Origin: a virus
Strand: one strand, 5' to 3'
IMG/VR virus record: IMGVR_UViG_3300031977_002685
Coordinates: 1-29,309 of that record
Length of the DNA stretch: 29,309 nucleotides
Below are positions 1,021 through 29,194 of the stretch, piece by piece. The notes under the pieces are model-generated. The model made no database searches. It saw nothing but the letters and a program-made list of their open reading frames with translations, and was not told where the DNA came from. The position numbers and the translations under genes were made by a program. Numbering within the stretch: position 1 is the stretch's first letter; the number at the start of each line of letters is the position of its first letter.

Positions 1021-1028
1021 ATTATAAG

Positions 1029-1057
1029 ATCTTATCACAGATCGCAGAACATGTCAA
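1029..1057 (-). promoter_or_regulatory. Candidate sigma70-like promoter for the DNA polymerase gene
   Basis: On the minus strand a perfect -35 box TTGACA (1057-1052) is followed after exactly 17 nt by TAAGAT (1034-1029), which matches the -10 consensus at 4 of 6 positions. The ATG of the polymerase begins 8 nt beyond the -10 box, so any transcript would be almost leaderless. The -35 box overlaps the stop codon of the preceding baseplate-region gene. The 12-bp palindrome ATAAGATCTTAT (1024-1035) covers the -10 box and could be an operator. This would fit early, host-polymerase expression of a replication gene. It is a motif match only. Confidence 0.4.
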
Positions 1058-4805: not shown

Positions 4806-4808
4806 TTT

Positions 4809-5147
4809 TTACAGCTCCAATATCGATAATACTCTTTCTAATGGATTCGGAATATCAATGACATCGCCAATCTCTAGATGACCTTCTGTTGGGACTTTAT
4901 TAAACCATGCGATAACCCACCAAAGAGATGCGTCATTGTAATATCTGTGGGCAAGCTTAAAGAATCTATCGCCGCTTTTCCATGTATGTGATACCAAATT
5001 TAATCTTGATATTTCTTTTGCGGTTGGATGCTTTAAGTTCGGAGTGAAATATTGCCTCATGGTTTTGACATTTCTCTCTTCACGAACTTTAGAATATAAT
5101 TCTGTATCATTCACGCCCAATCTTCTTGTATTATATCTTGAAGTCAT
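4809..5147 (-). CDS. LysM-like baseplate wedge protein (T4 gp53 type)
   Basis: This 112-residue protein has a C-terminal LysM-like fold: HTWKSGDRFFKLAHRYYNDASLWW (about 54-77) followed by NKVPTEGHLEIGDVIDIP (about 83-100). That is the pattern of T4 gp53 and of P2 gpX-like tail proteins, which join baseplate or tube parts. The N-terminal half is charged and without recognisable motifs. It sits between a tube-cap-like protein and the hub-like protein, consistent with a baseplate inner wedge or hub connector. The start ATG follows the upstream stop within 3 nt, with AGGA about 9 nt upstream. The LysM-like fold is clear by eye; equivalence to gp53 is inferred. Confidence 0.7.
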   Translation of the reverse strand: MTSRYNTRRLGVNDTELYSKVREERNVKTMRQYFTPNLKHPTAKEISRLNLVSHTWKSGDRFFKLAHRYYNDASLWWVIAWFNKVPTEGHLEIGDVIDIPNPLERVLSILEL

Positions 5148-5149
5148 AA

Positions 5150-5941: not shown

Positions 5942-5958
5942 AGTAATTCTCTATTATG

Positions 5959-5966
5959 TAAATAGA
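5959..5966 (-). promoter_or_regulatory. Late promoter motif candidate (TCTATTTA) before the tube-cap-like gene
   Basis: The coding strand reads TCTATTTA 17 nt before the ATG at 5941, in the only sizeable gap (60 nt) of the baseplate block. It differs at one position from the recurrent ACTATTTA octamer of this window. No terminator is visible in the same gap. Confidence 0.45.
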
Positions 5967-6001
5967 TTAAAAAACGATTATTTCAAATATGAAGTTGTGG
6001 A

Positions 6002-15876: not shown

Positions 15877-17571
15877 TTAGCCAAGAAGATCTTCAACGAT
15901 TACAAGACCATACATATCTGGTCTAACCATCTTCTTGCCATAACGAGTCATGACACCCTTACGAGGCACGAAATCGTCTGGTCCAAAAATGGTTGGAGTA
16001 ACTTGTAGAGGCACATAAGGTGCATATACATAACCGCTTTCTAGGAAGCTGTTACCTTTACGACCAACGAGGATAACATTTCTTAGGAAATATGGGTCAA
16101 CATAGATGTCCCATTTCTTAGAAAGTTGTCCAACACGAGTCGCACCAGCAGCTCCGCGATTTTCGTCAGCGGTTGTGTCAGCGCGGAAACCAGATGTGAA
16201 CTCAAGAACATTAGCAACTTCTGGGCCACAAACGAGGAAGTTTGCGCCACCACGAAGAGTTTTTCTGTGGATTTGAGCAGAAACATCGTTTACTGTCTCA
16301 AGAAGAGTCTCATACCATTCAGAAACTGTTCCAGTGAAGTCTGGGAATAGGCTTTGGTTGGTAGATTGTCCACCAGTTCTGTCAACAAACTTACCTGGTT
16401 TACGAGACCAGTAGTAGGTTCCAGCTTTAGCACCTTTAACAAGGTCTTCAAGGATTTCTTGGTCAATTTCAAGAGCGATTTGCTCAGAAAGAATGCTTGT
16501 CAACTCAACTTCTGCATCCAAGTTGTGGTATGCGTTGATGTCTTGTTGAAGCTCTGGAGTCCATTTTGCTTTAAGTTTCTTAGTGATTGCAGTTACAGAC
16601 ACAGAATCAACTTTGATGTCGATTTCTGGAATGTTCGTGTTGTCTTCAAGACCCCATGCTGTTGTTCCAACGATTGAGCCAACATCAGCTCCACCATTTG
16701 TGAAGTTATCTGAGATTGTAAATGTTGCAGCAGTAACACCCTCAACAGAAGCTGTAAGGTCTCCAACTGTCTCAGAACCTGTCGCTTCAAGAACAACAAG
16801 AGCAGTAGCTGTAGAAGAGCCAGAGAATCTTGTCAAGCGACGAACTTGGCGACCAACTGATAGTCCTTCAAGAGTGACTGTTACGAAATCATTTTCGTTG
16901 AATTGTGCTGCTGTAAGCTCAGAAACAGTGATAGTAGCGACAACAGCTAATGATCCAGAAAGATCAGGGTCATATTGAACTCCCTTAGACAATCCACCAG
17001 CTGCATCATCACCAGTTCCAGAACCAACAGTTCCAGAAAGGATAGCAACTGGGTTAGAAATGGTAGCTGATTGTGACACTGGAGATGACCAACCATTGTT
17101 AAGAGCGTAGAAGCTAGTTTCTGCATTTGCGCCAGCAAGATCTACACCACCAGTGATTTGGCGACCGACTCTTCCACCACCGTATACAGATGCGCTGACA
17201 GAATATCCGCCCAAGTTAAGTTGGTCAGGATTTCCGCCATAAGTAAAGTCGAGGAAGAAGATAAGGCCAGATGGCAAGCTCATTGGTTGAACGGAAACAA
17301 GTTCATTTGCTACAAGTCCACCGAATACACGACGAACGATTGGAAATGCAACTGCTGCAAAACCTTCTACATCACCAGCTGCCATTGAGGAAGACTCACG
17401 AAGAATTTCTTTCGCTTGGTTCTCCAAAAGTGCTGCCATACCATTGCGAGTGTGCTCGCTGTTAAGACCTTCCAAAAGTCCAGTCTTTTCCCATTTGTTT
17501 AGAAGGGCTTCGCCTTCTTTTTGAGTGTTGCGTCTAACAACACCTTCTGTCAATTTTTCTACAATAGACAT
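15877..17571 (-). CDS. gp23: Major capsid protein (T4 gp23-like)
   Basis: This 564-residue protein is the main shell subunit. The N-terminal delta region (about 1-60) is followed by DVEGFAAVAFPIVRRVFGGL (about 67-86), the standard beginning of mature T4-like capsid proteins. Two LxE sites, LLE (48-50) and LRE (57-59, before SSSM), are possible cleavage points for the prohead protease. A Gly/Ser/Thr-rich middle (about 150-320) is probably the inserted surface domain. The C-terminal part (DTTADENRGAAGATRVGQL, YVDPYFLRNVILVGRKG, VYAPYVPLQVTP, DMYGLVIVEDLLG) is strongly gp23-like. The ribosome site AAGGAGAA is strong, and the scaffold gene lies 20 nt upstream. Confidence 0.95.
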   Translation of the reverse strand: MSIVEKLTEGVVRRNTQKEGEALLNKWEKTGLLEGLNSEHTRNGMAALLENQAKEILRESSSMAAGDVEGFAAVAFPIVRRVFGGLVANELVSVQPMSLPSGLIFFLDFTYGGNPDQLNLGGYSVSASVYGGGRVGRQITGGVDLAGANAETSFYALNNGWSSPVSQSATISNPVAILSGTVGSGTGDDAAGGLSKGVQYDPDLSGSLAVVATITVSELTAAQFNENDFVTVTLEGLSVGRQVRRLTRFSGSSTATALVVLEATGSETVGDLTASVEGVTAATFTISDNFTNGGADVGSIVGTTAWGLEDNTNIPEIDIKVDSVSVTAITKKLKAKWTPELQQDINAYHNLDAEVELTSILSEQIALEIDQEILEDLVKGAKAGTYYWSRKPGKFVDRTGGQSTNQSLFPDFTGTVSEWYETLLETVNDVSAQIHRKTLRGGANFLVCGPEVANVLEFTSGFRADTTADENRGAAGATRVGQLSKKWDIYVDPYFLRNVILVGRKGNSFLESGYVYAPYVPLQVTPTIFGPDDFVPRKGVMTRYGKKMVRPDMYGLVIVEDLLG

Positions 17572-17591: not shown

Positions 17592-18776
17592 TTATTTTGT
17601 AATCCCCGCAAGTCTTCTCATTCTGTCCATTGCAGAATTGTTGACTTGCTTCGTTTCTTTTTTTGATTTTAATACGAGACTGTTATTTTTGCTAACTGCT
17701 TCACTTAAGTTTCTTGGAGCTGTATTTTTGACAGACTTCAAGTTGTGTTGCAATGTTTCATAAATAACTTTTGCCTCTTCAATTGATCTCGCATTAGAAA
17801 TAGATTCGACAATTTGTTGTTTTTGTCGCTCATTCAAGGAGTCCGATTTCAGAACACGATTTTCATAAACTAATTTAGCATTTGAAACATTGAGATCTAC
17901 AAGTTTATCGCTAACTTGTTTTGCAAGGCTCTTAAGTTCTTTATAATCAGAACCAAGCTTATTGTTTTCAAGCTTGAGAGAACTGACATGCTCTTCCAAT
18001 CCCATGATTTTCTTTAATGCTTTGTTGAGTGCTTTGTTGTCCTCTTCGGCATCATCACACTCCATTTCAGCTGCTGCCACATCCATAGCATATTCTTGCT
18101 GTGGTAGTGTTGGGTGAGTTGTTCCCAAATCACCTCTTGCCTCAACTGACATATCGACTGTTAATTTTTCTGACAAGATATCTTCCATGATTTCAAGGAT
18201 GTTTTCTTCTGTTAGTTCGATATCTTCGTCTAACTCTTCTTCTTTTAACTCAACTTCTTCGTTGGTTTCTTTTTTCTTTGCGCGGAGAGCTTCAAGATCT
18301 TTTTCGTCAATGTCTCCGTCTTTGTCTTGGTCCATCACCTTCTCTTGCTTATCAGAAAGCTTTTCTTCCAAATCAAGCATTTCTGCAAGGGCTTCCAAAT
18401 CTGTTTCAAGTTCTTCGCCTTCTGGTGCTGGTTCCGCCATCGCAGACATGTCAACCTCTTCTTCTTCTGGTTCGTCACGAAGAGCATCGACAATGCCACT
18501 TAGATCAATTGTTACAACTTCTTGCTCGTCTGGACAAGGACATGCAGTCTCACCTTCAGTTGCTTTTAAGTTGATGTCACCAATCATCTCGTCTGGTTCG
18601 TTATTGGCCATTCCTGCCATTGGATCCACTTCATCTTGTTCGAGCAAAGCGTCAACTGCTTGCTTTACATCCGATGAATATTTTTCAAGGATTTCTCGTT
18701 CCGCATTCTTGATTGCGGCCTCTTTAAGTGATTGTGCGTCGATGACGGCTTGTTCTAACATTGATGATGACATCAT
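17592..18776 (-). CDS. gp22: Prohead core scaffolding protein (T4 gp22-like) with EF-hand loop
   Basis: This 394-residue, very acidic helical protein sits directly before the capsid gene, as gp22 does in T4. It should form the internal core on which the shell assembles and then be degraded by the prohead protease. Residues 95-205 are rich in Glu/Asp, and 250-345 form a predicted coiled coil ending with SISNARSIEEAKVIYE (325-340), a pattern I recognise from marine gp22-like scaffolds. Residues 149-160 (DQDKDGDIDEKD) are a perfect 12-residue EF-hand calcium loop: D149, D151, D153, G154, I156, D160. Two ATGs are adjacent; the second (18773) has better spacing to GGAG. A Ser-rich opposite-strand frame is only its shadow. 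Confidence 0.87.
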   Translation of the reverse strand: MMSSSMLEQAVIDAQSLKEAAIKNAEREILEKYSSDVKQAVDALLEQDEVDPMAGMANNEPDEMIGDINLKATEGETACPCPDEQEVVTIDLSGIVDALRDEPEEEEVDMSAMAEPAPEGEELETDLEALAEMLDLEEKLSDKQEKVMDQDKDGDIDEKDLEALRAKKKETNEEVELKEEELDEDIELTEENILEIMEDILSEKLTVDMSVEARGDLGTTHPTLPQQEYAMDVAAAEMECDDAEEDNKALNKALKKIMGLEEHVSSLKLENNKLGSDYKELKSLAKQVSDKLVDLNVSNAKLVYENRVLKSDSLNERQKQQIVESISNARSIEEAKVIYETLQHNLKSVKNTAPRNLSEAVSKNNSLVLKSKKETKQVNNSAMDRMRRLAGITK

Positions 18777-18856: not shown

Positions 18857-19264
18857 CTAACCTACCCCGGCAGAGCCTGACCAATTGTTCGCTAACACCT
18901 CAGATGGGATGTTTGTTAAGCCAGCGACAATATCAAATCCTATATTGCCTGATTGAGACTTATAATAAAGTCTTGATACTTTAAAATAAAATACTTGCGG
19001 AGATGTGTCCTGCACTGATGGAGAGCTAAATAATCTAAAATAGTTGTTGGTGTTGAAACCATTTTCAGAAAAAGCAATTAAAGGCCCATCTACTGTTCGC
19101 CCAATATTGTTGTTCCTTATGTGAATCCAATTTGTTATAAATGGAAATTCTATAACTCGGACCACATTATCTGCATTAATTCTACCTTTAAAAAAAGGCT
19201 TTCCTGATACTTGATAAGCTCCAACATCTCCTAATGATGGTGGTCCGGGAGAATAAACAGACAT
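18857..19264 (-). CDS. Tandem virion-type paralogue 3, unknown function
   Basis: This 135-residue beta-rich protein shares with its two upstream neighbours an N-terminal GAYQVSGKPFFKG (about 15-27), a central IEFPFITNWIHIRN (about 39-52) and a C-terminal NNWSGSAGVG at the very end. It is the most diverged of the three. The ATG overlaps the preceding stop codon (TAATG) and uses a GAGGGGG site formed by the end of that gene, so translation is coupled. There is no signal peptide or membrane segment. Placement between the prohead protease and the scaffold suggests a head surface (decoration or vertex) protein, but that is inference. Confidence 0.65.
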   Translation of the reverse strand: MSVYSPGPPSLGDVGAYQVSGKPFFKGRINADNVVRVIEFPFITNWIHIRNNNIGRTVDGPLIAFSENGFNTNNYFRLFSSPSVQDTSPQVFYFKVSRLYYKSQSGNIGFDIVAGLTNIPSEVLANNWSGSAGVG

Positions 19265-19740
19265 TATCCCACCCCCTCTGAGCCGGACCAGTTATTTGTA
19301 ATCGTGCTTGTTGGAATTCCTGTTAATCCCGCAATTACATCAACATTATCGGCAGCACCAGATAAATAAAGTTTTGTTAACTTAAGTTCTAATCGTGGCG
19401 TCCGTGCTTGACGGTTATAGTTCGGTGTCGGATTTGAATTATCAGTATAGTTATCGTTGACTTGAAAGTATGATCCAGTCAGTTTAGTGCCAGGAAGTCC
19501 TGGAACTAATGCATTTTCAAACCCATTTGCCGAAGCCGCAACCAAAACTCTCTTTGAATTATCACTAGACTTTGATGAATTTCTAACAATAATCCAGCGA
19601 GTCACATATGGAAATGTTATTTCTAACGGACCATTTGTGTAAAGAGACACATCAATTCCGCCACTTACAAATGGCTTTCCTGAAACCTGATATGAGCCAA
19701 CATTTCCTAAAGCAGGTGGACCTTGATTGTAATCTGCCAT
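19264..19740 (-). CDS. Tandem virion-type paralogue 2, unknown function
   Basis: This 158-residue protein is the middle member of the tandem triplet. It shares VGSYQVSGKPFVSGGIDVS (about 14-32), PLEITFPYVTRWIIV (about 38-52), ELKLTKLYLSGA (about 120-131) and the NNWSGSEGVG end with paralogue 1. It differs mainly by an insertion of about 25 residues between the central strands (about 80-110, rich in Asn, Thr, Pro), which looks like an enlarged surface loop. It starts 3 nt after the preceding stop with GAAGG upstream. A capsid decoration role is inferred from position and small beta-rich size. Confidence 0.65.
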   Translation of the reverse strand: MADYNQGPPALGNVGSYQVSGKPFVSGGIDVSLYTNGPLEITFPYVTRWIIVRNSSKSSDNSKRVLVAASANGFENALVPGLPGTKLTGSYFQVNDNYTDNSNPTPNYNRQARTPRLELKLTKLYLSGAADNVDVIAGLTGIPTSTITNNWSGSEGVG

Positions 19741-19743
19741 TAT

Positions 19744-20145
19744 TTAAATACCTTCAGAGCCAGACCAGTTATTTATTATTGTTCCAGATGAAATAGTCGT
19801 TAATCCAACGATTACATCGCAATTTGTGCAAGCACCAGTAAGATATAATTTCGTTACTTTCAGTTCTAAACGAGCAGTCATTGTGTCTCCATAGTCATTC
19901 CCATCTTTATTTACTGTAAAGTAATTGTTTGTATCAAATCCAGTTGATGAAAAAGCTACTTTAACATCATTGCTTGTATCGTGATTTGTTACAGTAATCC
20001 ATCTTGTGACTGTTGGAAAAGAAATTTCTAAAGGACCACTCGTGTATGCAGAAACATCAATTCCTCCACTAAGAAATGGCTTTCCTGATACTTGATAGGA
20101 GCCGACATGTCCTAGCCCCGGTGATCCATAATTAAAAACTGCCAT
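19744..20145 (-). CDS. Tandem virion-type paralogue 1, unknown function
   Basis: This 133-residue protein is the first member of the triplet. It is beta-rich, with VGSYQVSGKPFLSGGIDVS (about 14-32), PLEISFPTVTRWITV (about 38-52), ELKVTKLYLTGAC (about 93-105) and the NNWSGSEG end. The start has a good GAGG site and an AGTATTTA motif 17 nt upstream, so the triplet probably has its own promoter. Three copies in a row suggest duplication followed by divergence of an exposed virion part. I cannot name the family; head decoration, vertex or head fibre are all possible. Confidence 0.65.
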   Translation of the reverse strand: MAVFNYGSPGLGHVGSYQVSGKPFLSGGIDVSAYTSGPLEISFPTVTRWITVTNHDTSNDVKVAFSSTGFDTNNYFTVNKDGNDYGDTMTARLELKVTKLYLTGACTNCDVIVGLTTISSGTIINNWSGSEGI

Positions 20146-20162
20146 AATTTACCTCAATATTA

Positions 20163-20170
20163 TAAATACT
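20163..20170 (-). promoter_or_regulatory. Late promoter motif candidate (AGTATTTA) before the triplet
   Basis: AGTATTTA on the coding strand, 17 nt before the ATG at 20145 and overlapping the last base of the bS21 stop codon. It differs from the main octamer at one position. The opposite strand reads TATAAATA here, the T4 late box, but no gene lies downstream on that strand. Confidence 0.45.
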
Positions 20171-20379
20171 TACGATCTTTCGTTTTCGCGCTGCTCTTTT
20201 CTTTTTAGCTTTTCAAGCTCTGCTTTTCTCTTTGCCTTCTTCTCTCTTTTGATTTCAGATGGCTTTTTGAATTGCTGTCTTTCGCGATACTCTTCAATAA
20301 TTTTTTCTTTTTTTACTTTTCTTGAGAATCTTTTTAGCATCGCTTCAATCGATTCATTCTTTCTTATTTTAACATGCAT
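20170..20379 (-). CDS. rpsU: Phage-encoded small-subunit ribosomal protein bS21
   Basis: This 69-residue, highly basic protein matches bacterial bS21 along its length: VKIRKNESIEAMLKRFSRKV (3-22) aligns with the [20 protein letters not shown] region of E. coli S21, then a YRERQQFKKPSEIKREKKAK stretch (31-50) with the conserved R-x7-KP spacing, then a Lys/Arg-rich helix. bS21 sits on the 30S platform near the 3' end of 16S rRNA and affects mRNA start-site selection. The reading frame extends upstream to 20430, but that part overlaps the previous gene; the ATG at 20379 gives the standard N-terminus. The start is 4 nt after the previous stop and lacks a Shine-Dalgarno sequence, unlike most neighbours. 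bS21 genes are known in SAR11 and some large phages. Here it lies inside the capsid operon. Confidence 0.92.
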   Translation of the reverse strand: MHVKIRKNESIEAMLKRFSRKVKKEKIIEEYRERQQFKKPSEIKREKKAKRKAELEKLKRKEQRENERS

Positions 20380-20383
20380 ATTA

Positions 20384-20758
20384 TTATTTATTAAAAATAC
20401 TGAACTGGCTAATGTCAATTCCTGGGTCATTCGGATCAGAATCCCTTAATGCTCCATATTGTGCTGATTGCGAACTACCACCAGATCTTAGTGGTTGTGT
20501 ATTTTCAAATATTCCTTTAAATCCTGCTGATTTTTCTAAACTTCTTTTTGTCTCTTCCAACTTCATTTTTGCTGCCTTAACTGCTTCAGATTGACCTTCA
20601 TTAATTGGCTTTGATGGAGCAGCTTGCAATTGTGTTGAGCCAAGTCCTTTTGCAACTTCGGTTATGATTCCAGAAAGTGTTCCGTCTTCAAAAATAACTT
20701 CTTTTATGCATTCTTTAATAAGTGGCTTAAGGACTTTCTTAAGTTCTTCTTTTTTCAT
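20384..20758 (-). CDS. Small prohead-core-type protein with N-terminal targeting-like helix
   Basis: This 124-residue protein has a basic amphipathic N-terminal helix (MKKEELKKVLKPLIKECIKE) containing IKE and IFE sites that match the LxE/IxE cleavage rule of T4 prohead protease. A middle charged helix (about 55-80, KAAKMKLEETKRSLEKS) follows, and the C-terminus is polar and probably flexible. It lies directly after the protease gene, with its ATG overlapping the protease stop (ATGA). In T4 the genes around 21 encode small core proteins (gp67, gp68), so a core or internal head role is plausible. No sequence match to those is claimed. Confidence 0.6.
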   Translation of the reverse strand: MKKEELKKVLKPLIKECIKEVIFEDGTLSGIITEVAKGLGSTQLQAAPSKPINEGQSEAVKAAKMKLEETKRSLEKSAGFKGIFENTQPLRSGGSSQSAQYGALRDSDPNDPGIDISQFSIFNK

Positions 20759-21360
20759 TTTTCACCTACGATATCGTTTAAAAGTCGGTTGATTCGGTCT
20801 GCTTTTGACCAGATTTGTCTTTGCTTTGATTCAGATAATCTCATGAATGCGCCTTGTGTTGATGGCTCAGACACAATATCAAAACAAATTAATTGGAAAT
20901 CTTCTTGGACAATTGTTTTGCCCATGTTTTCTCTAACAGAACCCAAGCCTCTTGAAGAGATTCCAAGAGTGATTCCATCATCAATAAGAGCTTTTAGGAT
21001 TTGGCCAGATGGAGTTGACAGAACTTTAATCTTGCCCATGAGATCTTTTCCTTCCCACCAAAGAGATGTAACGATATGAGAGGAATTTTTAAGATTTACA
21101 ACTGAGTCTTCTGGGTGATCAAGTTCTCCGCAAGCTCTTTTTTCTTTGACAACTTTCATATAATTGTCAACTTCTCTTCTTAAGATATCTTCTGAATAGA
21201 TTCTGCCATTACCATTTTGAGCATCTGCTCTTTGCATAATGCCTGTAAGATAGATTGTTCCGTTCTTAACTTCGCGTTTCTCATCCTCTGATAGAAGGTC
21301 TTGGCAAACACCACCTTCACAAAGTTCAAAATATTCTCGGAGAAGATACTTATCAGACAT
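20755..21360 (-). CDS. gp21: Prohead core protease (T4 gp21-like, serine peptidase)
   Basis: This 201-residue protein cleaves scaffold, capsid and internal proteins in the prohead, after LxE/IxE sites in T4. The motifs expected of the family are visible: NGRIYSEDILRREV (51-64), CGELDHP with H82 as the likely catalytic His, a GISSRGLGS block (133-141) with the catalytic Ser (S135 or S136), and ICFDIVSEPS (158-167), where D161 may complete the triad. Length is close to T4 gp21 (212 aa). The start codon overlaps the preceding stop (TAATG). Downstream lies a small core-type protein, as expected for a prohead operon. Confidence 0.92.
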   Translation of the reverse strand: MSDKYLLREYFELCEGGVCQDLLSEDEKREVKNGTIYLTGIMQRADAQNGNGRIYSEDILRREVDNYMKVVKEKRACGELDHPEDSVVNLKNSSHIVTSLWWEGKDLMGKIKVLSTPSGQILKALIDDGITLGISSRGLGSVRENMGKTIVQEDFQLICFDIVSEPSTQGAFMRLSESKQRQIWSKADRINRLLNDIVGEK

Positions 21361-21902
21361 TATTTTTCTTCTCCTTCTCTTATTGTCACGCCACTGGATG
21401 GCCTAAATGTTATTGGTCCACTTCCGGGCCTAATACCACCAGGAATTTCGGGCTTTATTTCTTTTGGAATATCTTTAATTTCTCTCTCAATTATGTTTAG
21501 GTATTCCATGATTTCTTTAGTATCAAGTTTTTCTGCCTTAGAAGCATATAGCTTCAAAGAATTTAGAGCATTTAATGCTTTATCTTGGCTTTCATTCATC
21601 ATGCCAGAATATGCTGGATTGTCTTCAATTTTTTCCGAACCTTGGAAAGTTTTTGTTAACCAACCATGAATGTCGTCCAATCCAGAAATAATATCTTGAG
21701 AGATTGGGTCATTTGCTTGACAAGCCATTGGAAGATGATTTTTAGCCATATCAAGTAATGCAAACCATTTGTCAAGCTCTTGTGGTCTTTCTACATTTAT
21801 GCTTTTCTCGAAATAAGGATCTTTTGGCTGTTCTGCCTCATTTGCAAGATTTTGAACTTCTTCCTTGATAACTTGTTTGATATAGCCTAATTTAAATTTC
21901 AT
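21360..21902 (-). CDS. Candidate internal head protein with capsid-targeting-like N-terminus
   Basis: This 180-residue soluble protein has no known domain. The N-terminus (MKFKLGYIKQVIKEEV) is a basic amphipathic helix with an IKE site and resembles the start of three other proteins in this window. The rest is mainly helical (about 40-145) with a Pro/Gly-rich C-terminal tail (about 148-175). It lies immediately before the prohead protease gene (1-nt overlap) and after a terminator, with a GGAGATG site upstream. The guess is that the N-terminal helix takes the protein into the prohead, where the protease trims it. Confidence 0.6.
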   Translation of the reverse strand: MKFKLGYIKQVIKEEVQNLANEAEQPKDPYFEKSINVERPQELDKWFALLDMAKNHLPMACQANDPISQDIISGLDDIHGWLTKTFQGSEKIEDNPAYSGMMNESQDKALNALNSLKLYASKAEKLDTKEIMEYLNIIEREIKDIPKEIKPEIPGGIRPGSGPITFRPSSGVTIREGEEK

Positions 21903-21913
21903 AACACATCTCC

Positions 21914-21938
21914 AAAAATAAAAGCGGGCATTACCCGC
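21914..21938 (-). terminator. Rho-independent terminator before the protease cluster
   Basis: On the minus strand GCGGG-TAATG-CCCGC (5-bp perfect stem) is followed by TTTTATTTTT. It lies just before the ribosome site of the gene starting at 21902, so read-through or a nearby unseen promoter must serve the protease genes. Confidence 0.8.
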
Positions 21939-22012
21939 ACGAGTCAGTTGCCGCTACAGCATCTTCTAACTGGCTGAAGCATCCACTTCTTTGTCCAACC
22001 ATTTACCATTCG
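21931..22012 (-). other. Structured intergenic element with possible micro-ORFs
   Basis: The gap between two genes holds more structure than usual. On the minus strand GCTTCAGC (21980-21973) can pair with GCTGTAGC (21960-21953), with one mismatch, around a 12-nt loop. CAGTT in the loop can pair with AACTG just downstream (possible pseudoknot), and the terminator stem follows. Two micro-ORFs also run through it: 22009-21944 (21 aa, starting MVNGWTKKW) and 22002-21931 (23 aa, starting MVGQRSG and ending in SCG, its stop inside the terminator loop). Neither has a convincing ribosome site. Function unknown: small RNA, leader peptide, or chance. Confidence 0.3.
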
Positions 22013-22336
22013 CTAATCACCACCTAATTTGACTTTCAATCCAAAGTCATTAACTAACATACTTAGCATGTATGACACTCCAGATCCAATACAACCCATA
22101 CAAAGAGCAGTGGACGCAGAATAATCAAATGTAAATAGTTCCGTATATTTATTTATGGACCACAAAAATAAGCCAACCCAAAATCCCATACACATTGGGC
22201 AATGAAACAATTTTCCAAACCCATTTAGTGATTCTTTTGATGGCCTAATTTTGTTGAAGATGCTTCCAAATACAAGAATTTGTGTCATTCCATAAGAAGC
22301 TAAAGAGAAATAGATAAGATCCAATTCATGCCTCAT
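22013..22336 (-). CDS. Small membrane protein with two CxxC motifs, unknown function
   Basis: This 107-residue protein has about three hydrophobic segments (about 8-24, 48-62, 75-95), so it is probably in the host inner membrane. The sequence FHCPMCMGFWVGLF (45-58) is distinctive, with C46-x2-C49; a second pair, C79-x2-C82, precedes GSGVSY. I have seen similar HCPMC-GFWVG proteins in marine phages, without known function. The ATG overlaps the upstream stop (ATGA). It is an odd membrane protein in the middle of head genes; redox, metal-binding, or a superinfection or lysis-related role are all open. Confidence 0.65.
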   Translation of the reverse strand: MRHELDLIYFSLASYGMTQILVFGSIFNKIRPSKESLNGFGKLFHCPMCMGFWVGLFLWSINKYTELFTFDYSASTALCMGCIGSGVSYMLSMLVNDFGLKVKLGGD

Positions 22337-22896
22337 TCATAATATCCATATCCGCTAAGATATCTGCGGATACGATATGGAGTGATTGAGCCTTTTTTCG
22401 GTTCTTGAGGAACTTCGCCAAGTTCTGTTGAATCTTCTGGAGATGGGTCAACATAATTGTCTTCAATTTCGTCCTCAATGAATTGCTGAGTTTGGAACTT
22501 TGGTCTTTCGATATCAATGAATTTTGATGTAGAAAAAACAACAACTTGATTCTCGTTAATGTTATCGTCAACAGCTTCAGGATATTTTCCTTCAATTGAG
22601 CCAAAAACATTTCCTGCTTGAACAGACTCTGGAAGAATTATACCTTGCTGGACCATATATTTGAAATAATTATTTTGAATTTCATAGATTTCATCAGAGA
22701 TGTCATCCTTTGGAAATGTCATAACCTTTTTCATTTTTGTATCGATAATGATATCAATTTGGTTATGATCCAAAATCATTAATTTTCCATCAAGAGTTTT
22801 GCGAATGTTTATTTCAACTTGAGGAACTGGAGGTTGTTTTGGTTGCTCTTGAGCTTCAATCTCTTCAGATGGCTCAATATTAATATTAATTGCCAT
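22333..22896 (-). CDS. Conserved head-region protein, unknown function
   Basis: This 187-residue acidic, soluble protein has a Pro/Glu/Gln-rich N-terminus (about 8-26), then a beta-like part (INIRKTLDGKLMILDHNQID, about 29-48), MTFPKDDISDEIYEIQNNYFKYM (about 59-81) and VQAGNVFGSIEGKYPEA (about 92-108). The C-terminus ends with a YRIRRYLSGYGYYE segment. The middle block is familiar from proteins next to portal genes in marine T4-like phages, but I know no function. It overlaps the upstream gene by 11 nt and the membrane protein gene by 4 nt, so all are likely co-translated. Confidence 0.6.
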   Translation of the reverse strand: MAININIEPSEEIEAQEQPKQPPVPQVEINIRKTLDGKLMILDHNQIDIIIDTKMKKVMTFPKDDISDEIYEIQNNYFKYMVQQGIILPESVQAGNVFGSIEGKYPEAVDDNINENQVVVFSTSKFIDIERPKFQTQQFIEDEIEDNYVDPSPEDSTELGEVPQEPKKGSITPYRIRRYLSGYGYYE

Positions 22897-23716
22897 CTTC
22901 TTGAAACTCCCTTACAAGACTTTGAATTTTTGATATCTCTTGAATCATTTGTTGGTCTGGTTTTCTGGCCTTATATGATTCAAGCATTTCCAACACTTTG
23001 TTTGCGTTTGTTTGCATTGTTTGGTCTTGTTGGATTTCTTCTGTGTCGAATGATTTCTTAACTGCTTCTTTGAGTCTGCCAATCTCTTCTTCAAGATACA
23101 CTTTTAATTCGATTCCGTTGTTGTCGAATGAAGTGATATATCTGTTCAATAGTTCTTTTTGTTCTTGCAAAAGTTTATCACCATATTCTTCGTTGAATCT
23201 TTTTGTAAATGATTTGAAAACAAGGTTATCAATTGGCTTTAATTCGGTCTCTTTTTGGTTATCGACTGTCATTGTATCAACAATGTTTTTCTCCAACAAG
23301 ACTTTTGATTTAACAGTGATGTTTTGGCTAAAAATTTGTGAAATTGATGCTAAATTTTTATAGTTCGGAACGAAATTGGAGAATACATCATTCTCAAAGT
23401 TCTTCTTAATTTTCTTTAAAATTACATTCTGTTCTTGCAGTAGTTTATCTTTGTCAATATTTTGGTGACGCAACTTAACTTCGTTCAATACTCTTTCTGC
23501 AACTTGACCAGAAATACCGTTTGTTTCTGTGATTGCTTTATATAATTTAAGCTCTTTATAAGATTCTGTATTTCTGTTAAATGACTCTTTGATGATGGCC
23601 TTGATTTCGTGTTGTTTCTGGACATTCTTATCCAACACAGCCCTTGTTAGCTCTTGAATAAGGGCTTCATAAATAAACGCACTATTTCTTTTTTTGTTAT
23701 GTTTAAACTTTGCCAT
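22886..23716 (-). CDS. Coiled-coil protein next to the portal, unknown (candidate prohead core)
   Basis: This 276-residue, charged, almost entirely helical protein has a conserved-looking N-terminus (FKHNKKRNSAFIYEALIQEL, about 3-22). Lys/Glu/Gln-rich helices follow with heptad-like spacing (about 95-115, 180-260). There are no membrane segments or catalytic motifs. The ATG at 23716 overlaps the portal stop (TGATG) with GAGAG upstream; an in-frame GTG one codon earlier is less likely. Proteins starting in this manner often follow the portal gene in uncultured marine phages. A scaffold or core role around the portal is inferred from position only. Confidence 0.6.
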   Translation of the reverse strand: MAKFKHNKKRNSAFIYEALIQELTRAVLDKNVQKQHEIKAIIKESFNRNTESYKELKLYKAITETNGISGQVAERVLNEVKLRHQNIDKDKLLQEQNVILKKIKKNFENDVFSNFVPNYKNLASISQIFSQNITVKSKVLLEKNIVDTMTVDNQKETELKPIDNLVFKSFTKRFNEEYGDKLLQEQKELLNRYITSFDNNGIELKVYLEEEIGRLKEAVKKSFDTEEIQQDQTMQTNANKVLEMLESYKARKPDQQMIQEISKIQSLVREFQEDGN

Positions 23717-25620
23717 CACGCTTCTCTCTTTTTAGAATCCAAGTTCTCAATGATTGCTTGAATCTCAACATCATTTTGAAGAACTTCCAATTCTTCTTTT
23801 GTCATGCTCTTCTTATAATTAGTTGATAAATCTTCAACAATGCCTTTACTTAATTGCCTTAGTGGATAATAAAAGTGATCTTTTTGTCTTGATGGCATTT
23901 TGCCTGTTTCATCTGACCATTTGCTTTTGTAATGTCTTTTTCTTGCGCCAAGATCTCTTTTGTCGTGATGTGTTTTAAAAACTGAATCATTTCTCTTACC
24001 AGGTGCTGATAATAGCGTTTCTTCTTCGCCACCTTCTTCTCCAGCGGCTGCTTCATCACCTCCAAGACCAAGATCATCGCCTGCACCAGCAGCTTCATCG
24101 CCTGCTAGATCTGCTCCGCCCGTAAGATCAGCACCACCCATTAGGTCACCACCGGCAGCAGCTTCTGCATCAGCAGCGGCAGCTGTTTCGAGTGCAGCAT
24201 CGAACTTACGATCATAGAACATTTCTCTTTGATTCTTGATAACTTCTTCATCAGAAAGATCAAAGATGTTTTTGGAAACCCAATTTCTACTGAAGTATCC
24301 TTCAGTTGCAGCAGCTGCAATATCAAACTTAGTTCTCCAATGCTCAAGCTCTTGCAATTCTGCAAGTTTTGATGGAGCGTTCAAGTGAAGCTTAAACGAG
24401 ATTAAATCATTGCCAGTATAGCCCAAAGTATAAAGATGGATAACTGCAATCTTTTCAAGCTCTGAAATAATGCTTCTCTGAAGTCTTGTGATTGTTCTTG
24501 CAAAACGAATATCTTTTTGTGCAAGAGTTGTTTTGTCTTCGCCTTCGCCTTCTTGCGTGAGATATGAAGGAGGAATCTTTAATGCTGAAAATAATTTGTC
24601 ACGAAGATATTTTACATCATCGATATCGCCTGTATATGTTCCACCAGGCAATGACTCAACTCTTGTTCCGCCAGTTGAGCCACGAACAGGAATGAAATAA
24701 TCTTCATCAATTGACATTGGATTGTAACGAAGGTCAACTCGGCCTGTTGTCTCGTCAATAACTTGATTTCTTTTCATTGATGTTACAATTCTTTGCATGT
24801 GTTGTTCGACTTCTTTTTCTGGAATACCACCAACATCAATATAAAAAATTCTTCTTTCTGGAGAGCGAACAACACGATATGCCATCATTGCATCTTCGAT
24901 AAGTGAAAGTTGTCTCCAAATTCTTCTTGAAGCTTCCAAAACTGATGTTCCATAAGGAGCATACTTGTCGTTTCCAAGGATTCTAAAGTGTGCAACTTGC
25001 CAGTTTTCAAATGTCAATCCACCAGAATTCCACTGAAATTGAACATAATTTGGATTTGTTTTGTCTTCTCCTTCCATTCTTTCGATTTCAGCAGGAGGAA
25101 GGCCAACAACAGACTTAACACCAGTATTCTCATCAATATCCAAATAAAGAAAATAATCTCCATATTTGCACATTGTTCGGCACCATCCAAAAATATTAAA
25201 CTCAATATTGAGGACACTATAAAAAAGATTATTTAAAAGTTCTTTAATTTCTTCGTTTGGGCAATTGATTGTCAAAAGCTTTTGAAGAGGAGAAGAAACT
25301 GTCATCTCGTCTGCATAGATGTCGAGAGCAGATGCAATTTCTGGAGTATATTCCATCTGGTCAAAATCAACATATCTTTCAGCTCTTGCGGCATGATTGA
25401 TTGAATTGGCATAAATGTTATCAAAAGGATTGTAAGTGGTCTTTTTAAATTGCAAACCAGCAGCAGACTGGAAGTTATATTTGTCTAGCTGCCATCTCTT
25501 TAGTTGTCTTGGGTTTTGTTGTTGATATTGTGTAAGTGGACCTGATAAGATTCTTGTTAATGCCTTATAAAGTATCGAATCAGGATTTCTTGGGTTTTTG
25601 TTGTTTCTATTGTTTGCCAT
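23716..25620 (-). CDS. gp20: Portal protein (T4 gp20-like)
   Basis: This 634-residue protein forms the dodecameric vertex ring through which DNA is packaged and to which the neck binds. Signature segments are EIASALDIYADE (about 94-105), the LSLIEDAMMAYRVVRSPERR stretch (about 238-257) followed by IFYIDVGGIP, FIPVRGSTGGTRVESLPGG (about 310-328), and LRDKLFSALKIPPSYL (about 340-355). Between about 480 and 545 lies an unusual low-complexity Ala/Gly/Asp/Glu tract with GGADL-type repeats, probably a flexible surface segment. It is longer than T4 gp20 (524 aa), mostly because of that tract and the basic tail after it. It starts behind AAAGGA, a few bases after the terminase stop. Confidence 0.93.
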   Translation of the reverse strand: MANNRNNKNPRNPDSILYKALTRILSGPLTQYQQQNPRQLKRWQLDKYNFQSAAGLQFKKTTYNPFDNIYANSINHAARAERYVDFDQMEYTPEIASALDIYADEMTVSSPLQKLLTINCPNEEIKELLNNLFYSVLNIEFNIFGWCRTMCKYGDYFLYLDIDENTGVKSVVGLPPAEIERMEGEDKTNPNYVQFQWNSGGLTFENWQVAHFRILGNDKYAPYGTSVLEASRRIWRQLSLIEDAMMAYRVVRSPERRIFYIDVGGIPEKEVEQHMQRIVTSMKRNQVIDETTGRVDLRYNPMSIDEDYFIPVRGSTGGTRVESLPGGTYTGDIDDVKYLRDKLFSALKIPPSYLTQEGEGEDKTTLAQKDIRFARTITRLQRSIISELEKIAVIHLYTLGYTGNDLISFKLHLNAPSKLAELQELEHWRTKFDIAAAATEGYFSRNWVSKNIFDLSDEEVIKNQREMFYDRKFDAALETAAAADAEAAAGGDLMGGADLTGGADLAGDEAAGAGDDLGLGGDEAAAGEEGGEEETLLSAPGKRNDSVFKTHHDKRDLGARKRHYKSKWSDETGKMPSRQKDHFYYPLRQLSKGIVEDLSTNYKKSMTKEELEVLQNDVEIQAIIENLDSKKREA

Positions 25621-25622
25621 TG

Positions 25623-27212
25623 TTATCCTTTAATAATCCAGCCAAAATCATTATATATTTTTTTTGCTTCGTTCATTTTATCAAAGTTTTGTTCTTTTTT
25701 GTAGCCAATCATACCAGGAATTGTAGTATTGAACTTTGTGTTTGCCACAACCATTGAATTTAAGAACGCTCGCTTATATTTAAGATCTTTTGTGCTTTCC
25801 TCCAATACAGTATCCCTGACCCAACAAGTTATTGCCAATGACATTACAAGATCATCATTGTAACTTCTTTGAGCTTCAGGTCTTCCATTTTTCCACACAA
25901 AAGTCTTTAACTCTTGGAAAGAACGAACAGAATTGATAGTAATTAGGTTATTTCTGATGAATTCTTCCATTTTAGCCACAATAAGTGGCCGAGTTTTCTG
26001 AGAAGTTGTAAAACCAGGCACAGAATTAGAAACATTTTCTGCTTCGTATTGCTCAAGATATTCGTGAGTGCCTTTAACAGAGTAATAAATATTTGGATAT
26101 TCTGCTTCAATTAATTTTTCAAGAACTGAAAATCCAATGTTATTGTTCTCCATAACAAGCATTGCATCGCCATATTCTCTTCCGGCATCATACAATATTC
26201 TTGCAAACAGATCAGTTGTTGGTTTGCCACGATATTCTGCAACTTGATTCATTGTTGCAATATCAAAAATGTGAAAAACTGAATAATCTTTTCCATCTCC
26301 ACGAGCAGTATCGCCAACAAGAATATATTTCTTTTCTTTGTCGTATTCTTCCCAAATCCAAAAGTTTCTATCAAATCCAGTTTGATGTTTTGGTTCTGAA
26401 GAATGTTGCTCGATTCTTGTTAAGTCATCAGCGTGAACAACTGTCTCACCAGAAGCATTAAAATTACATTCATACTCTTGTGCAATCTTTCTTCTTGAAA
26501 GATTTTTTGTTGTCTCTTCAAACCAATCTTGATCTCTTTCAGGATGCAATGTCCAGTGCAACTTTGTTGGATGGAATGTGCTTTCTCCTGTATCAGCTGC
26601 AACATATGTTTTATGAAACCAATTACCAACACCATTTGGAGATGAAAGAGCAATACATCGACCACCAGCTGCCATTGTAGGTTGCAGGGCTGTCCACAAC
26701 TCGTCAAAGCCTTCAATGTGCGCTGCCTCATCGATTACAAGAAGTGAAAGTGCTTCTGAACGACCAGCATCTGCTGATGTTGATGACGCTTTGATTTCTG
26801 AGCCATTGTTAAGAACAAATGATGAACGATTGTCGATTGCAATTTGGGCCAATTGGTCAAACCAAGGAGGCAGATTCTTAATCATTGCTTTTACTTTTTT
26901 GACAAGGTTTGCTGCTGTGCTAAACTTTGTTGCAATGACCAGAATATTTTTGTCTCGATGAAATAGCATCATCCATGACACATAAGCAGCAGTAATCGTA
27001 GAGATGCCCATCTGCCTTGACTTTAGGATGATATTATTACGATAATCGTTAAATTTGTATAATAAATCTTTTTGAAAACCCCAAGTCTTAAACGCTACTT
27101 GTCCACGAGTTGGATGTGAGATTTTGCAGTAATTGTCGATAAAAAAGACTGGATCTTTTCCGCATTTAACAATTTCTTTTACGAGATCTTTTTTGGAAAG
27201 GTATTGTGACAT
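25623..27212 (-). CDS. gp17: Terminase large subunit (T4 gp17-like)
   Basis: This 529-residue packaging motor has an N-terminal ATPase and a C-terminal nuclease. Walker A is KSRQMGIST (64-72), Walker B is LLVIDEAAH (157-165, D161/E162), and LSSPNG (189-194) is the coupling motif. Nuclease acidic residues are D301 in LVGDTARGDGKDYS, E355 in MLVMENNN, and D453/D454 in YNDDLVMSLA. The N-terminus (CGKDPVFFIDNYCKISHP) is typical of gp17-like proteins without an extra domain. It shows no Shine-Dalgarno sequence, and an ACTATTTA motif lies only 8 nt before the ATG, so a promoter there would give a nearly leaderless message. No small terminase subunit is recognisable nearby. Confidence 0.95.
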   Translation of the reverse strand: MSQYLSKKDLVKEIVKCGKDPVFFIDNYCKISHPTRGQVAFKTWGFQKDLLYKFNDYRNNIILKSRQMGISTITAAYVSWMMLFHRDKNILVIATKFSTAANLVKKVKAMIKNLPPWFDQLAQIAIDNRSSFVLNNGSEIKASSTSADAGRSEALSLLVIDEAAHIEGFDELWTALQPTMAAGGRCIALSSPNGVGNWFHKTYVAADTGESTFHPTKLHWTLHPERDQDWFEETTKNLSRRKIAQEYECNFNASGETVVHADDLTRIEQHSSEPKHQTGFDRNFWIWEEYDKEKKYILVGDTARGDGKDYSVFHIFDIATMNQVAEYRGKPTTDLFARILYDAGREYGDAMLVMENNNIGFSVLEKLIEAEYPNIYYSVKGTHEYLEQYEAENVSNSVPGFTTSQKTRPLIVAKMEEFIRNNLITINSVRSFQELKTFVWKNGRPEAQRSYNDDLVMSLAITCWVRDTVLEESTKDLKYKRAFLNSMVVANTKFNTTIPGMIGYKKEQNFDKMNEAKKIYNDFGWIIKG

Positions 27213-27220
27213 ACATTAGA

Positions 27221-27228
27221 TAAATAGT
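27221..27228 (-). promoter_or_regulatory. Late promoter motif candidate (ACTATTTA) before the terminase gene
   Basis: Exact ACTATTTA on the coding strand, only 8 nt from the terminase ATG, in the 16-nt gap after the preceding stop. The spacing is shorter than the 17-19 nt seen for most other copies. Confidence 0.45.
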
Positions 27229-27822
27229 TTATTGTGCAGGAGCTGGAGCTGGGCCTTTTGCATCGGCGGCGGGTTTTGTGTTTGCAAGCGCAGACAATTG
27301 CTTAACCACTTCTGCCGACTTTGGATTTTCTGTTGCAAGATCATTAATAAATTTCATAACAGCAGCTTCCATTTCATCCACAAATCCGCCAAGAACAGGA
27401 ACATCTTTCAAGTCCGCAAGAACTTTCTTAATTTTGCCAATGTGCTTGCTCATCATGTTGGCAATCTTTCCAGCCTTGCCAAGATATATGGCCAGCTTTC
27501 CGCCTTTACCAATTGCATCGCCAACACCAGGAATCATTGAAATAGCTGATAGTGCAGCTTGCAGATACTCGCCTTTTTTCGCATACAATAAAGCATTTGT
27601 AAGATCAGCAGCTTCACCAATTCCTGGAATTGCACCTGCAACATCTAGAGCAACATGCTTTAATTTATCAAGAATGCCTTCATCAAGATTCTCAGACATC
27701 AAATTAAATTGCTCATGCAATAAATTAATTCTATTTTCTTCTTGTTGCCAAATAGATTCAAGCTTTAATGACTCTATTTCTTCGGTAATTAATTTATTGA
27801 GATATTGTTTTGTAAGTTTCAT
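27229..27822 (-). CDS. Candidate internal/ejected virion protein with targeting-like N-terminus and hydrophobic hairpin
   Basis: This is a 197-residue protein of unknown family. Residues 1-16 (MKLTKQYLNKLITEEI) form a basic amphipathic helix with an ITE site, resembling T4 capsid-targeting peptides; more LxE/IxE-type sites follow (KLE at 20-22, LHE at 35-37). Residues 62-111 form a Gly/Ala-rich hydrophobic hairpin: AGAIPGIGEAADL, then AALSAISMIPGVGDAIGKGG. This repeated IPG-x-G pattern resembles the pre-toxin segment of bacterial polymorphic toxins. A helical part and a Pro/Ala tail follow. The ATG overlaps the upstream stop (ATGA). The idea is that it is packaged in the head and enters or crosses the host membrane during DNA injection; this is inference. 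Confidence 0.6.
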   Translation of the reverse strand: MKLTKQYLNKLITEEIESLKLESIWQQEENRINLLHEQFNLMSENLDEGILDKLKHVALDVAGAIPGIGEAADLTNALLYAKKGEYLQAALSAISMIPGVGDAIGKGGKLAIYLGKAGKIANMMSKHIGKIKKVLADLKDVPVLGGFVDEMEAAVMKFINDLATENPKSAEVVKQLSALANTKPAADAKGPAPAPAQ

Positions 27823-28385
27823 TCTCTTGGCTCTTCATCTCTTTTGCCGCTCACATTTTCAGGAGCTTTTGCAGAGAAATCTTCTTTACCAAAACCAATC
27901 CAATTTTTGATTGAGTTGTTCAATCTTTCTTCAACAGTTGTTCCAAGTTCTGGATTGTCAGGAATTCCACCAATTTTGTATGTTTGACTTGCATTGCACC
28001 AAGAATGTCTTTTATTCATGCTTTGGACATGGACATTTGGCTCTTTATCGTGCTTTGTTAATGAAAGAGAAGATTTTTTAATGCGACGATATTCCTTTTT
28101 TAGGAAGCTTGCAATGTCTTCAAGTCTTTGAGCAATCTCTCCTTCAAAGTCGTTCATGTAAACTTCTTTGAGTGAGATTTGACTTTGGTAATTAATGGTC
28201 AAAATATTGCCAGAAATCTTAACATTAAAGCCATCCATAACTCTTCTGTCGAGAATTGGATTTCCTTCTTCTCTTTGAAGACCGATTTTTAGTGGTTGTC
28301 CTTTGTCGTCTAATGCACCATCATAAGCGTTTGCAGCTGCTTGTGCGATCCCATTAACGATTTCTACAATATTACTGTCTGCCAT
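27819..28385 (-). CDS. Conserved virion-region protein, unknown function
   Basis: This is a 188-residue protein. The N-terminal helix (MADSNIVEIVNGIAQAAANAYDG) is followed by a beta-rich part (MDGFNVKISGNILTINYQSQ, about 50-69), a helical, basic middle (IAQRLEDIASFLKKEYRRIKKSSLSL, about 84-109) and a segment with NKRHSWCNASQTYKIGG (about 123-139). The C-terminus is charged. It has no signal peptide, membrane segment or catalytic motif that I recognise. The ribosome site AAGAGAGAA is acceptable. It is coupled by ATGA to the candidate internal protein downstream. A head or tail-completion role is possible; I do not recognise a T4 equivalent. Confidence 0.6.
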   Translation of the reverse strand: MADSNIVEIVNGIAQAAANAYDGALDDKGQPLKIGLQREEGNPILDRRVMDGFNVKISGNILTINYQSQISLKEVYMNDFEGEIAQRLEDIASFLKKEYRRIKKSSLSLTKHDKEPNVHVQSMNKRHSWCNASQTYKIGGIPDNPELGTTVEERLNNSIKNWIGFGKEDFSAKAPENVSGKRDEEPRE

Positions 28386-28403
28386 TATTATTCTCTCTTA
28401 AAA

Positions 28404-28862
28404 TTATTCTTCTGTTGCGTCTACAGTTGTTCCGCTCATCTCATCTTGAGCAGGAGCCGCTTCTTCTTCTGGAGCTGGGCCTGCTGCCATTTGTGCCAAT
28501 TGAGCGTGTTTTTTGTTTAGAGCGTTTAATGAGTTATTGAAAACAGGAGAAAAATCTTTTACCAATTCTTTTACGAATGGATTTTTCTCTCCAACTTTTG
28601 TGAACTCTGCATTCATTTTTTGCGACAATGCGTTCAAGTTATTTAACGCCTTTGACAATGCTTTGTGGTATTTCTTCCCAAGAGCCTTCGCTTGCCCTTG
28701 AGCGCGGCCAGCTTGAAATTGCTGCCTAATTCCAGCGGTTGCAGACTTGATTCCTGCACCGATACCAGCAAATGGATTAATTTCGTTTAGCTCTTCTTCG
28801 GAAAGGTTTTCCAGCTCTTCTACGATTAATTGTTCGATTAGTTCTTTTGTGACTTTTGCCAT
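28404..28862 (-). CDS. Candidate internal head protein with targeting-like N-terminus
   Basis: This is a 152-residue protein. The N-terminus (MAKVTKELIEQLIVEELENL) is an amphipathic helix with an IVE site like those of three other genes here. It is followed by a Gly/Ala-rich stretch (INPFAGIGAGIKSATAGI, about 28-45), basic helices (about 50-115), and an acidic Pro/Ala/Glu tail. The ATG at 28862 was chosen because GGAAGAGAAGAG lies just upstream; the frame stays open 12 codons further but without a better start. It overlaps the zinc-ribbon gene by 25 nt. Helical basic composition suits a DNA-associated or core protein inside the head. This is inference. Confidence 0.6.
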   Translation of the reverse strand: MAKVTKELIEQLIVEELENLSEEELNEINPFAGIGAGIKSATAGIRQQFQAGRAQGQAKALGKKYHKALSKALNNLNALSQKMNAEFTKVGEKNPFVKELVKDFSPVFNNSLNALNKKHAQLAQMAAGPAPEEEAAPAQDEMSGTTVDATEE

Positions 28863-29194
28863 TTCTCTTCTCTTCCTTCTACATGCTGTATATAACATTT
28901 AAAACAGCATTTAAATTTTGTCATATAAAGATCGTCTTTCATACTGAACGAATATGTATTGCAAACAGGACAAGTGCGATCAGAATCTTTAATAAATAGT
29001 TTCTTGGGCATTAAAATGCCATCGACTTCAATTTTCTCTTTTTCTTTCCGCACTTTATAAGATTTCTTGATTTGCTCAAGATAATCCTTTTCTTTTTCGT
29101 CGTCCCAATTTGCTTTTGGGTTTTGGATTGCTTCGTCGCCATATTTCTCTTTTATGGCCTTTTCAACCTTTATAAGATAATCTGGATCTTTCAT
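28838..29194 (-). CDS. Zinc-ribbon protein, unknown function
   Basis: This is a 118-residue protein. A charged helical N-terminal half (about 1-55) precedes a probable zinc ribbon: C75-x2-C78, 17 residues, then C96-C97-x2-C100, followed by a YIQHVEGREEKW end. I recall similar small proteins with this ending upstream of terminase in marine phages, without known function. I chose the ATG at 29194 because it overlaps the preceding stop (ATGA) and gives a plausible N-terminus. A start 25 codons earlier would only translate the end of the upstream gene in another frame. It might bind nucleic acid or another virion protein. Confidence 0.65.
   Translation of the reverse strand: MKDPDYLIKVEKAIKEKYGDEAIQNPKANWDDEKEKDYLEQIKKSYKVRKEKEKIEVDGILMPKKLFIKDSDRTCPVCNTYSFSMKDDLYMTKFKCCFKCYIQHVEGREEKWQKSQKN

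What the first reader, a model, noticed from the sequence alone, without database searches (positions are those of the whole stretch)
20384..28862. Four unrelated head-region proteins share an N-terminal signal resembling T4 capsid-targeting peptides
Genes starting at 28862, 27822, 21902 and 20758 begin with MAKVTKELIEQLIVEE, MKLTKQYLNKLITEE, MKFKLGYIKQVIKEE and MKKEELKKVLKPLIKE. The common plan is Met, basic residues, alternating Leu/Ile, then I-x-E at residue 12-17. T4 internal proteins carry short N-terminal peptides that target them to the prohead and are cut after LxE/IxE by gp21; a gp21-like protease lies in this cluster. This suggests a reusable targeting tag on different cargo proteins.
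Basis: partly seen in the sequence, partly recalled or inferred. Interest (0 to 1): 0.66.

Follow-up and report, generated by a model that had tools for sequence, protein, structure and literature searches.

The report
Reusable capsid-loading tag on phage proteins
Several unrelated proteins of this T4-like virus begin with the same short address label, and the same kind of label sits on hundreds of unrelated proteins of related viruses; it most likely loads them into the new virus head so that they are injected into the next host cell, which gives a simple way to find such proteins.

Summary
The N-termini exist as quoted. Three of the four genes (28862, 27822, 21902) carry a real, reusable N-terminal tag, MKITKxxLKxIIKEE[LI]; 21902 is a diverged copy. 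The fourth (20758) belongs to a conserved single-copy family downstream of gp21 and is not the swapped module. In 80 related protease loci plus the window, the motif occurs 113 times at gene starts on the late strand, 5 times internally and never on the opposite strand; shuffling expects about 0.1. Across IMG/VR it sits on about 250 unrelated cargo families. A control pattern with the residues in reverse order hits nothing.

The T4-like relatives studied use two further tags: MENFDLKKFLVENKLTxNS...LKE (the cultivated Flavobacterium phage immuto) and MKLLFENWRKYLKE. All three share the spacing phi-x-x-phi-[LI]-x-E seen in T4's MKTYQEFIAE. Six cargo families, including the 27822 protein, carry different tags in different phages. 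Two tags are followed at residues 21-24 by a second [LI]xE, matching the conserved capsid-protein site [LI]RE|[AS].

Best explanation: a T4-type capsid-targeting and injection tag removed by gp21 (0.78). The cut may lie at the second LxE rather than the first. No virion proteomics exists, so packaging and cleavage remain inferred.

The parts
28404..28862 (-). Tagged cargo protein 1 (152 aa), MAKVTKELIEQLIVEE...; homologues L010 and L014 are also tagged
28815..28862 (-). Tag T1, residues 1-16; further LxE at L20-S-E22 and L25-N-E27
   Evidence: LxE positions read from the sequence
27229..27822 (-). Tagged cargo protein 2 (197 aa), Gly-rich helical protein; homologous cargo carries tag T3 in L006, L019, L408, L409, L428, L436
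27778..27822 (-). Tag T1, residues 1-15 (MKLTKQYLNKLITEE)
27679..27687 (-). Predicted gp21 cleavage motif L46-D-E48, cut before G49; L46 and E48 at least 90% conserved at the tag/cargo junction
   Evidence: alignment; helix break at residues 46-47 in a low-confidence model
21360..21902 (-). Tagged cargo protein 3 (180 aa), in the slot just upstream of gp21; diverged T1 tag
21858..21902 (-). Diverged tag T1, residues 1-15 (MKFKLGYIKQVIKEE)
20755..21360 (-). gp21-type prohead protease (Peptidase_S77), the presumed processing enzyme
   Evidence: (E 1.6e-33)
20384..20758 (-). Conserved single-copy gene after gp21, probable prohead core protein; NOT the swapped tag
15877..17571 (-). Major capsid protein gp23; conserved propeptide site AKEILRE59|SSSM gives the protease motif of this clade
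17592..18776 (-). gp22-like scaffold by position (gene order before gp23), the likely docking partner of the tag
   Evidence: synteny; no family match; role inferred
23716..25620 (-). Portal gp20
25623..27212 (-). Terminase large subunit gp17

Best explanation
The shared N-terminus is a capsid-targeting sequence of the T4 type in a lineage-specific form. During prohead assembly the amphipathic tag (MKITKxxLKxIIKEE...) docks the cargo on the scaffold core. The S77 protease gp21 then cuts after an [LI]xE motif, either the tag's own I-x-E or a second LxE at about residue 22 (E48|G49 in the 27822 protein), and frees the mature cargo in the head. The cargo is packed with the DNA and presumably injected to act on the next host. 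Because tag and cargo are separate modules, unrelated genes are recruited and kept in late cassettes. Shown here: the tag is real, selected as protein, N-terminal, late-strand, reused on hundreds of families, swapped for other tags on homologous cargo, and followed by LxE sites. Inferred: docking on the core, cleavage, packaging and injection.
For: (1) Reuse: 569 tagged proteins in 351 cargo families over three tags; on protease loci alone 113 same-strand, 0 opposite-strand, 5 internal. (2) Not DNA-level: third codon positions vary at conserved residues, 0.2-0.9 bits against 1.2-2.0 at first and second positions for most. (3) Swap: six cargo families carry more than one tag class; the 27822 family has T1 in four members and T3 in six, with LxE kept at the junction; a GNAT family has T1 in L120 and T3 in L103. 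(4) Spacing: T4 residues 4 and 7 (targeting) and 8 and 10 (processing) in MKTYQEFIAE (PMC9026906) correspond to L8, I11, I12, E14 here; the generic T4-like pattern recovers ipII and ipIII in T4 with no control hits. (5) [LI]xE within 14 aa after the tag: T1 156/248 families against 67 shuffled; T2 43/51 against 12; E at residue 21 or 22 in 37 of 65 families of a subclass; capsid-protein site [LI]RE|[AS] conserved. (6) S77 in 30/50 T1 records against 7/40 random records (p about 4e-5); none of the 20 S77-negative records has an HK97-type capsid gene. (7) Operons of consecutive tagged genes; cargo includes kinases, NUDIX, GNAT, HNH and a TseH-like domain.
Against: No virion proteomics exists for any T1-bearing phage, and the tag pattern was absent from 13 isolate genomes apart from one chance-like hit in S-CRM01. 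There is no sequence homology to the T4 tag beyond spacing. The tag's own P1' residue is nearly always E, unlike the A/S of the capsid site. T3 tags show no second LxE enrichment, and S77 co-occurrence for T3 on 15-99 kb contigs is not significant (7/25 against 5/36). Large contigs are often T4-like anyway. Some tagged clusters lie 50-100 kb from the head genes. LxE enrichment just after the tag could partly reflect continued helix periodicity.
Confidence: 0.78

Rival explanations
1. The N-terminal helix is an assembly or oligomerisation element that recruits proteins to another virion or intracellular structure (tail, inner membrane, replication site), and gp21 plays no part.
For: The tag is a plain amphipathic helix; some tagged operons lie far from the head genes; the cut site is not proven.
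Against: LxE sites conserved next to tags and across a tag swap; same phi-x-x-phi-[LI]-x-E spacing as the proven T4 tag; association with S77.
Confidence: 0.14
2. The shared N-terminus is a DNA or mRNA element (translation enhancer, late promoter, recombination site) that only looks like a protein motif.
For: Tagged genes sit in tandem cassettes that could recombine at the repeated start.
Against: Synonymous third positions vary freely while the amino acids are fixed; different codons encode the same tag within one genome.
Confidence: 0.02
3. A chance resemblance of K/E/I/L-rich N-termini in AT-rich genes, over-read by the first reader.
For: True for the 20758 gene, whose N-terminus is family-specific.
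Confidence: 0.02
4. Tagged proteins are consumed as prohead core components (like T4 gp67 and gp68) and degraded during maturation, not delivered to the host.
For: Many tagged proteins are small and without known domains; the slot between gp20 and gp21 is where T4 has gp67 and gp68.
Against: Some cargos carry enzyme domains (kinase, NUDIX, GNAT, HNH, TseH-like) that make little sense as scaffold; cargo identity is very variable.
Confidence: 0.2

Closest known systems
[quoted passage not shown]
   Same: Short N-terminal peptide on unrelated internal proteins; phi-x-x-phi-[LI]-x-E spacing; gp21-type protease in the genome; cargo diversity under one tag was already described for T-even phages
   Different: Different sequence (MKITKxxLKxIIKEE, not MKTYQEFIAE); usually longer with a second LxE; hundreds of cargo families; two tag classes in one genome; packaging unproven
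Tags T2 (MENFDLKKFLVENKLTxNS) and T3 (MKLLFENWRKYLKE) found here; no published name found
   Same: Same architecture; found on homologous cargo in place of T1 (T3 in several families; T2 shares one family with T1 and one with T3)
   Different: Different residues; T2 belongs to the Flavobacterium phage immuto lineage; T3 coexists with T1 in the same genomes
Propeptides of phiKZ/SPN3US head and ejection proteins (described in PMC9026906)
   Same: Many packaged proteins cut after a short motif ending in E by a distant gp21 homologue
   Different: Motif there is S/A-x-E
T4 Alt ADP-ribosyltransferase
   Same: An enzyme carried in the head and cut N-terminally by gp21, the model for enzyme cargo
   Different: Propeptide only 7 residues, not this tag

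Membership tests
T4-type capsid-targeting sequence | Located at the extreme N-terminus within the first 10-19 residues | tested here: met
   113 N-terminal against 5 internal
T4-type capsid-targeting sequence | Shared by proteins whose mature parts are unrelated | tested here: met
   248 families for T1, 351 in all
T4-type capsid-targeting sequence | Aromatic or aliphatic residues at T4 positions 4, 7 and 8 and E at 10 (phi-x-x-phi-[LI]-x-E) | tested here: met
   L8, I11, I12, E14 nearly invariant; T4 roles from PMC9026906
T4-type capsid-targeting sequence | gp21-type S77 protease in the same genome | tested here: met
   window; 10/11 T1 records of at least 100 kb; control 7/40 of all sizes
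T4-type capsid-targeting sequence | L/I-x-E site at or just after the tag | tested here: met
T4-type capsid-targeting sequence | Detectable sequence homology to MKTYQEFIAE | tested here: inconclusive
   spacing only; the T1 DNA pattern has no match in T4
T4-type capsid-targeting sequence | Protein found inside the virion with the N-terminus removed | not testable with these tools
   needs virion proteomics
T4-type capsid-targeting sequence | Tag sufficient to package a foreign protein | not testable with these tools
   shown for T4 (PMC9026906), not here
Tagged set in this window | 20758 gene carries the tag | tested here: not met
   N-terminus conserved only within its own orthologous family

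The most novel reading that the evidence does not exclude
T4-like phages use lineage-specific address tags read by their own scaffold, often two tag classes in one genome, to load an interchangeable arsenal of hundreds of protein families (kinases, ADP-ribosyltransferase-like, acetyltransferases, nucleases, NUDIX, T6SS-effector-like) into the head for injection. The tags can therefore be used to read injected effectors directly from metagenomes.
Probability: 0.6. Interest if true: 0.86.

Novelty: new variant of a known kind. Interest (0 to 1): 0.76.

Why it matters
It is hard to know which phage proteins enter the host with the DNA. A short recognisable tag with an LxE cut site would mark them from sequence alone, in phages never grown. 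It would also supply new targeting peptides for loading proteins into phage heads, and a natural experiment (tag swaps on the same cargo) to learn what the prohead core reads. Because immuto, the closest isolate, carries its own tag on five proteins, the idea can be tested in culture now.

Tried and rejected
tblastn of the bare tag against isolate phages found nothing, probably too short or masked. Pfam and PHROGs gave no name for the window's tagged proteins, except a weak PHROG hit of the 27822 protein to phrog_790 'endolysin' (E 0.0019). The AlphaFold model of the 27822 protein is all-helical and of modest confidence (pLDDT 67), and Foldseek found no significant PDB match. Sequence searches of ART-like cargos against PDB gave nothing significant, so that assignment stays a motif-level inference. 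The idea that the E14|E15 bond is the only cut site was dropped because a second [LI]xE is strongly enriched after T1 and T2. A first small control for S77 co-occurrence was replaced by a larger one. Literature searches for the motif strings returned no relevant paper, but the library is open-access only.

Full report
Observation. The window is a 29 kb record of a T4-like virus. On the minus strand, from high to low coordinate, it carries terminase gp17, portal gp20, the S77 protease gp21, a gp22-like scaffold, capsid protein gp23, then sheath, tube and further tail genes, assigned by family match or conserved gene order. The four N-termini are exactly as quoted, and the 28862 gene has a clear ribosome-binding site. 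No head-shell or tail gene in the window shares the pattern.

Is it more than chance? In 80 related protease loci from IMG/VR plus the window, the strict motif is found 113 times at gene starts, all on the protease strand, 5 times inside genes and never on the other strand. Among 7259 ORFs, 100 carry it at the first start codon against a shuffled mean of 0.12. In 257 Gb of bacterial and archaeal genomes it occurs in only 13 stretches, all in MAGs and mostly in dense clusters of tagged genes, likely binned phage.

Membership of the four genes. 28862 and 27822 are canonical. 21902 is a diverged copy: it lacks the T/K at positions 4-5, but the gene in the same slot upstream of gp21 is canonically tagged in relatives. 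20758 is different: its N-terminus is conserved within one orthologous family that follows gp21 in many phages (MNKxxLKKLIKPVVKECIQEVLIEEG).

Reuse. Removing the tag and clustering what is left gives 248 cargo families for this tag (T1). Searching relatives showed two more tags. T2 (MENFDLKKFLVENKLTxNSxxLKE) came from the nearest isolate by protease similarity, Flavobacterium phage immuto. T3 (MKLLFENWRKYLKE) was first seen on homologues of the window's 27822 protein. In total there are 569 tagged proteins in 351 families. T1 and T3 coexist in single genomes and even in one operon; runs of five to twelve consecutive tagged genes occur. The sets fetched by pattern are biased to the consensus; the protease-locus set (105 tagged proteins, 53 families) is not.

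Protein-level selection. For T1, third codon positions at conserved residues are variable while first and second positions are largely fixed, so the conserved thing is the peptide.

Tag swapping. Six cargo families carry more than one tag class. In the 27822 family, four members have T1 and six have T3, followed by a homologous cargo domain; across this swap L46 and E48 (LxE) at the junction are conserved in at least 90% of sequences. A GNAT family shows T1 in L120 and T3 in L103. Interchange on homologous cargo argues that the tags do the same job.

Link to capsid targeting. In T4 the first 10 residues of IPIII (MKTYQEFIAE) suffice for packaging; residues 4 and 7 govern targeting and 8 and 10 processing, and gp21 cuts after L/I-x-E (PMC9026906). 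All three new tags keep that spacing: L-KQ-I-I-K-E, L-KK-F-L-V-E and W-RK-Y-L-K-E against Y-QE-F-I-A-E. A generic pattern of this form recovers ipII, ipIII and gp61.1 in T4 and one or two genes in seven other isolates, with no control hits. The capsid proteins of this clade have a conserved propeptide site [LI]RE|[AS], so the local protease specificity is probably [LI]xE. After T1 and T2 a second [LI]xE is strongly enriched (156/248 against 67 shuffled; 43/51 against 12), at residue 21 or 22 in 37 of 65 families of a T1 subclass. T3 shows none, and its own YLxE would serve, as in T4.

Protease co-occurrence. S77 was found in 30 of 50 T1 records (10 of 11 at 100 kb or more), 17 of 35 T2 records and 15 of 35 T3 records, against 7 of 40 records of at least 15 kb found with an arbitrary 14-mer. 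For contigs of 15-99 kb: T1 20/39 against 5/36, p about 6e-4; T2 p 0.02; T3 not significant. The S77-negative T1 records lack HK97-type capsid genes; three have a T4 portal and one a gp23, so they look like fragments.

Cargo. Most cargo is unnamed. Recognisable domains on T3 include protein kinases, NUDIX, guanylate kinase, nucleotidyl- and cytidylyltransferases and HNH; on T1, GNAT and a TseH-like type VI effector. Several T3 cargos have YH[VLY][ST]-type motifs resembling ADP-ribosyltransferases, which sequence search could not confirm. This is what an injected host-takeover set would look like, as with T4 Alt.

What is shown and what is inferred. Shown: a selected, modular, N-terminal, late-strand peptide tag in three classes, reused and swapped, with the T4 spacing and adjacent protease motifs. 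Inferred: scaffold docking, cleavage by gp21, packaging and injection. The concept is that of the T4 CTS, whose use on diverse T-even internal proteins is known (PMC3012670). New here are the sequences, the scale, the multiple classes and their presence in uncultivated and flavobacterial T4-like phages. No open-access paper containing the motif strings was found.

Noticed in passing
window 20170-20430 (-): A phage-encoded ribosomal protein bS21 (Pfam Ribosomal_S21, E 8.5e-13) lies in the head cluster just after the gp21 region; Microcystis phage Mel-JY01 has an annotated S21 in a similar place.
   Followed up: partly
window 18857-20145 (-): Three tandem paralogous genes (xxPxLGxVGxYQVSGKPF...) between the protease region and the scaffold, without Pfam or PHROG match; possible decoration proteins.
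   Followed up: no
L590 (PBIO01000025.1, 101 kb contig binned as Halobacteriovorax), 386-7769: About a dozen tagged genes follow each other in 8 kb, nearly every one starting MKITKRQLKRIIKEE; probably a misbinned large phage.
   Followed up: partly
T4 genome NC_000866, 18966-19130 (-): T4 gp61.1 (54 aa, hypothetical) begins MKTFKEFIKE, a CTS-like start; perhaps an unrecognised T4 internal protein.
   Followed up: no
window 28838-29194 and 27819-28385 (-): Two untagged genes without a family name, conserved in dozens of relatives in the same place beside tagged genes upstream of terminase; function unknown.
   Followed up: no
L234, L216, L194 (G055, G054 and others): Kinase-like proteins related to T3-tagged L414 begin MYxKFWxQFLxEQ, a further variant with the same phi-x-x-phi-L-x-E spacing.
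   Followed up: partly
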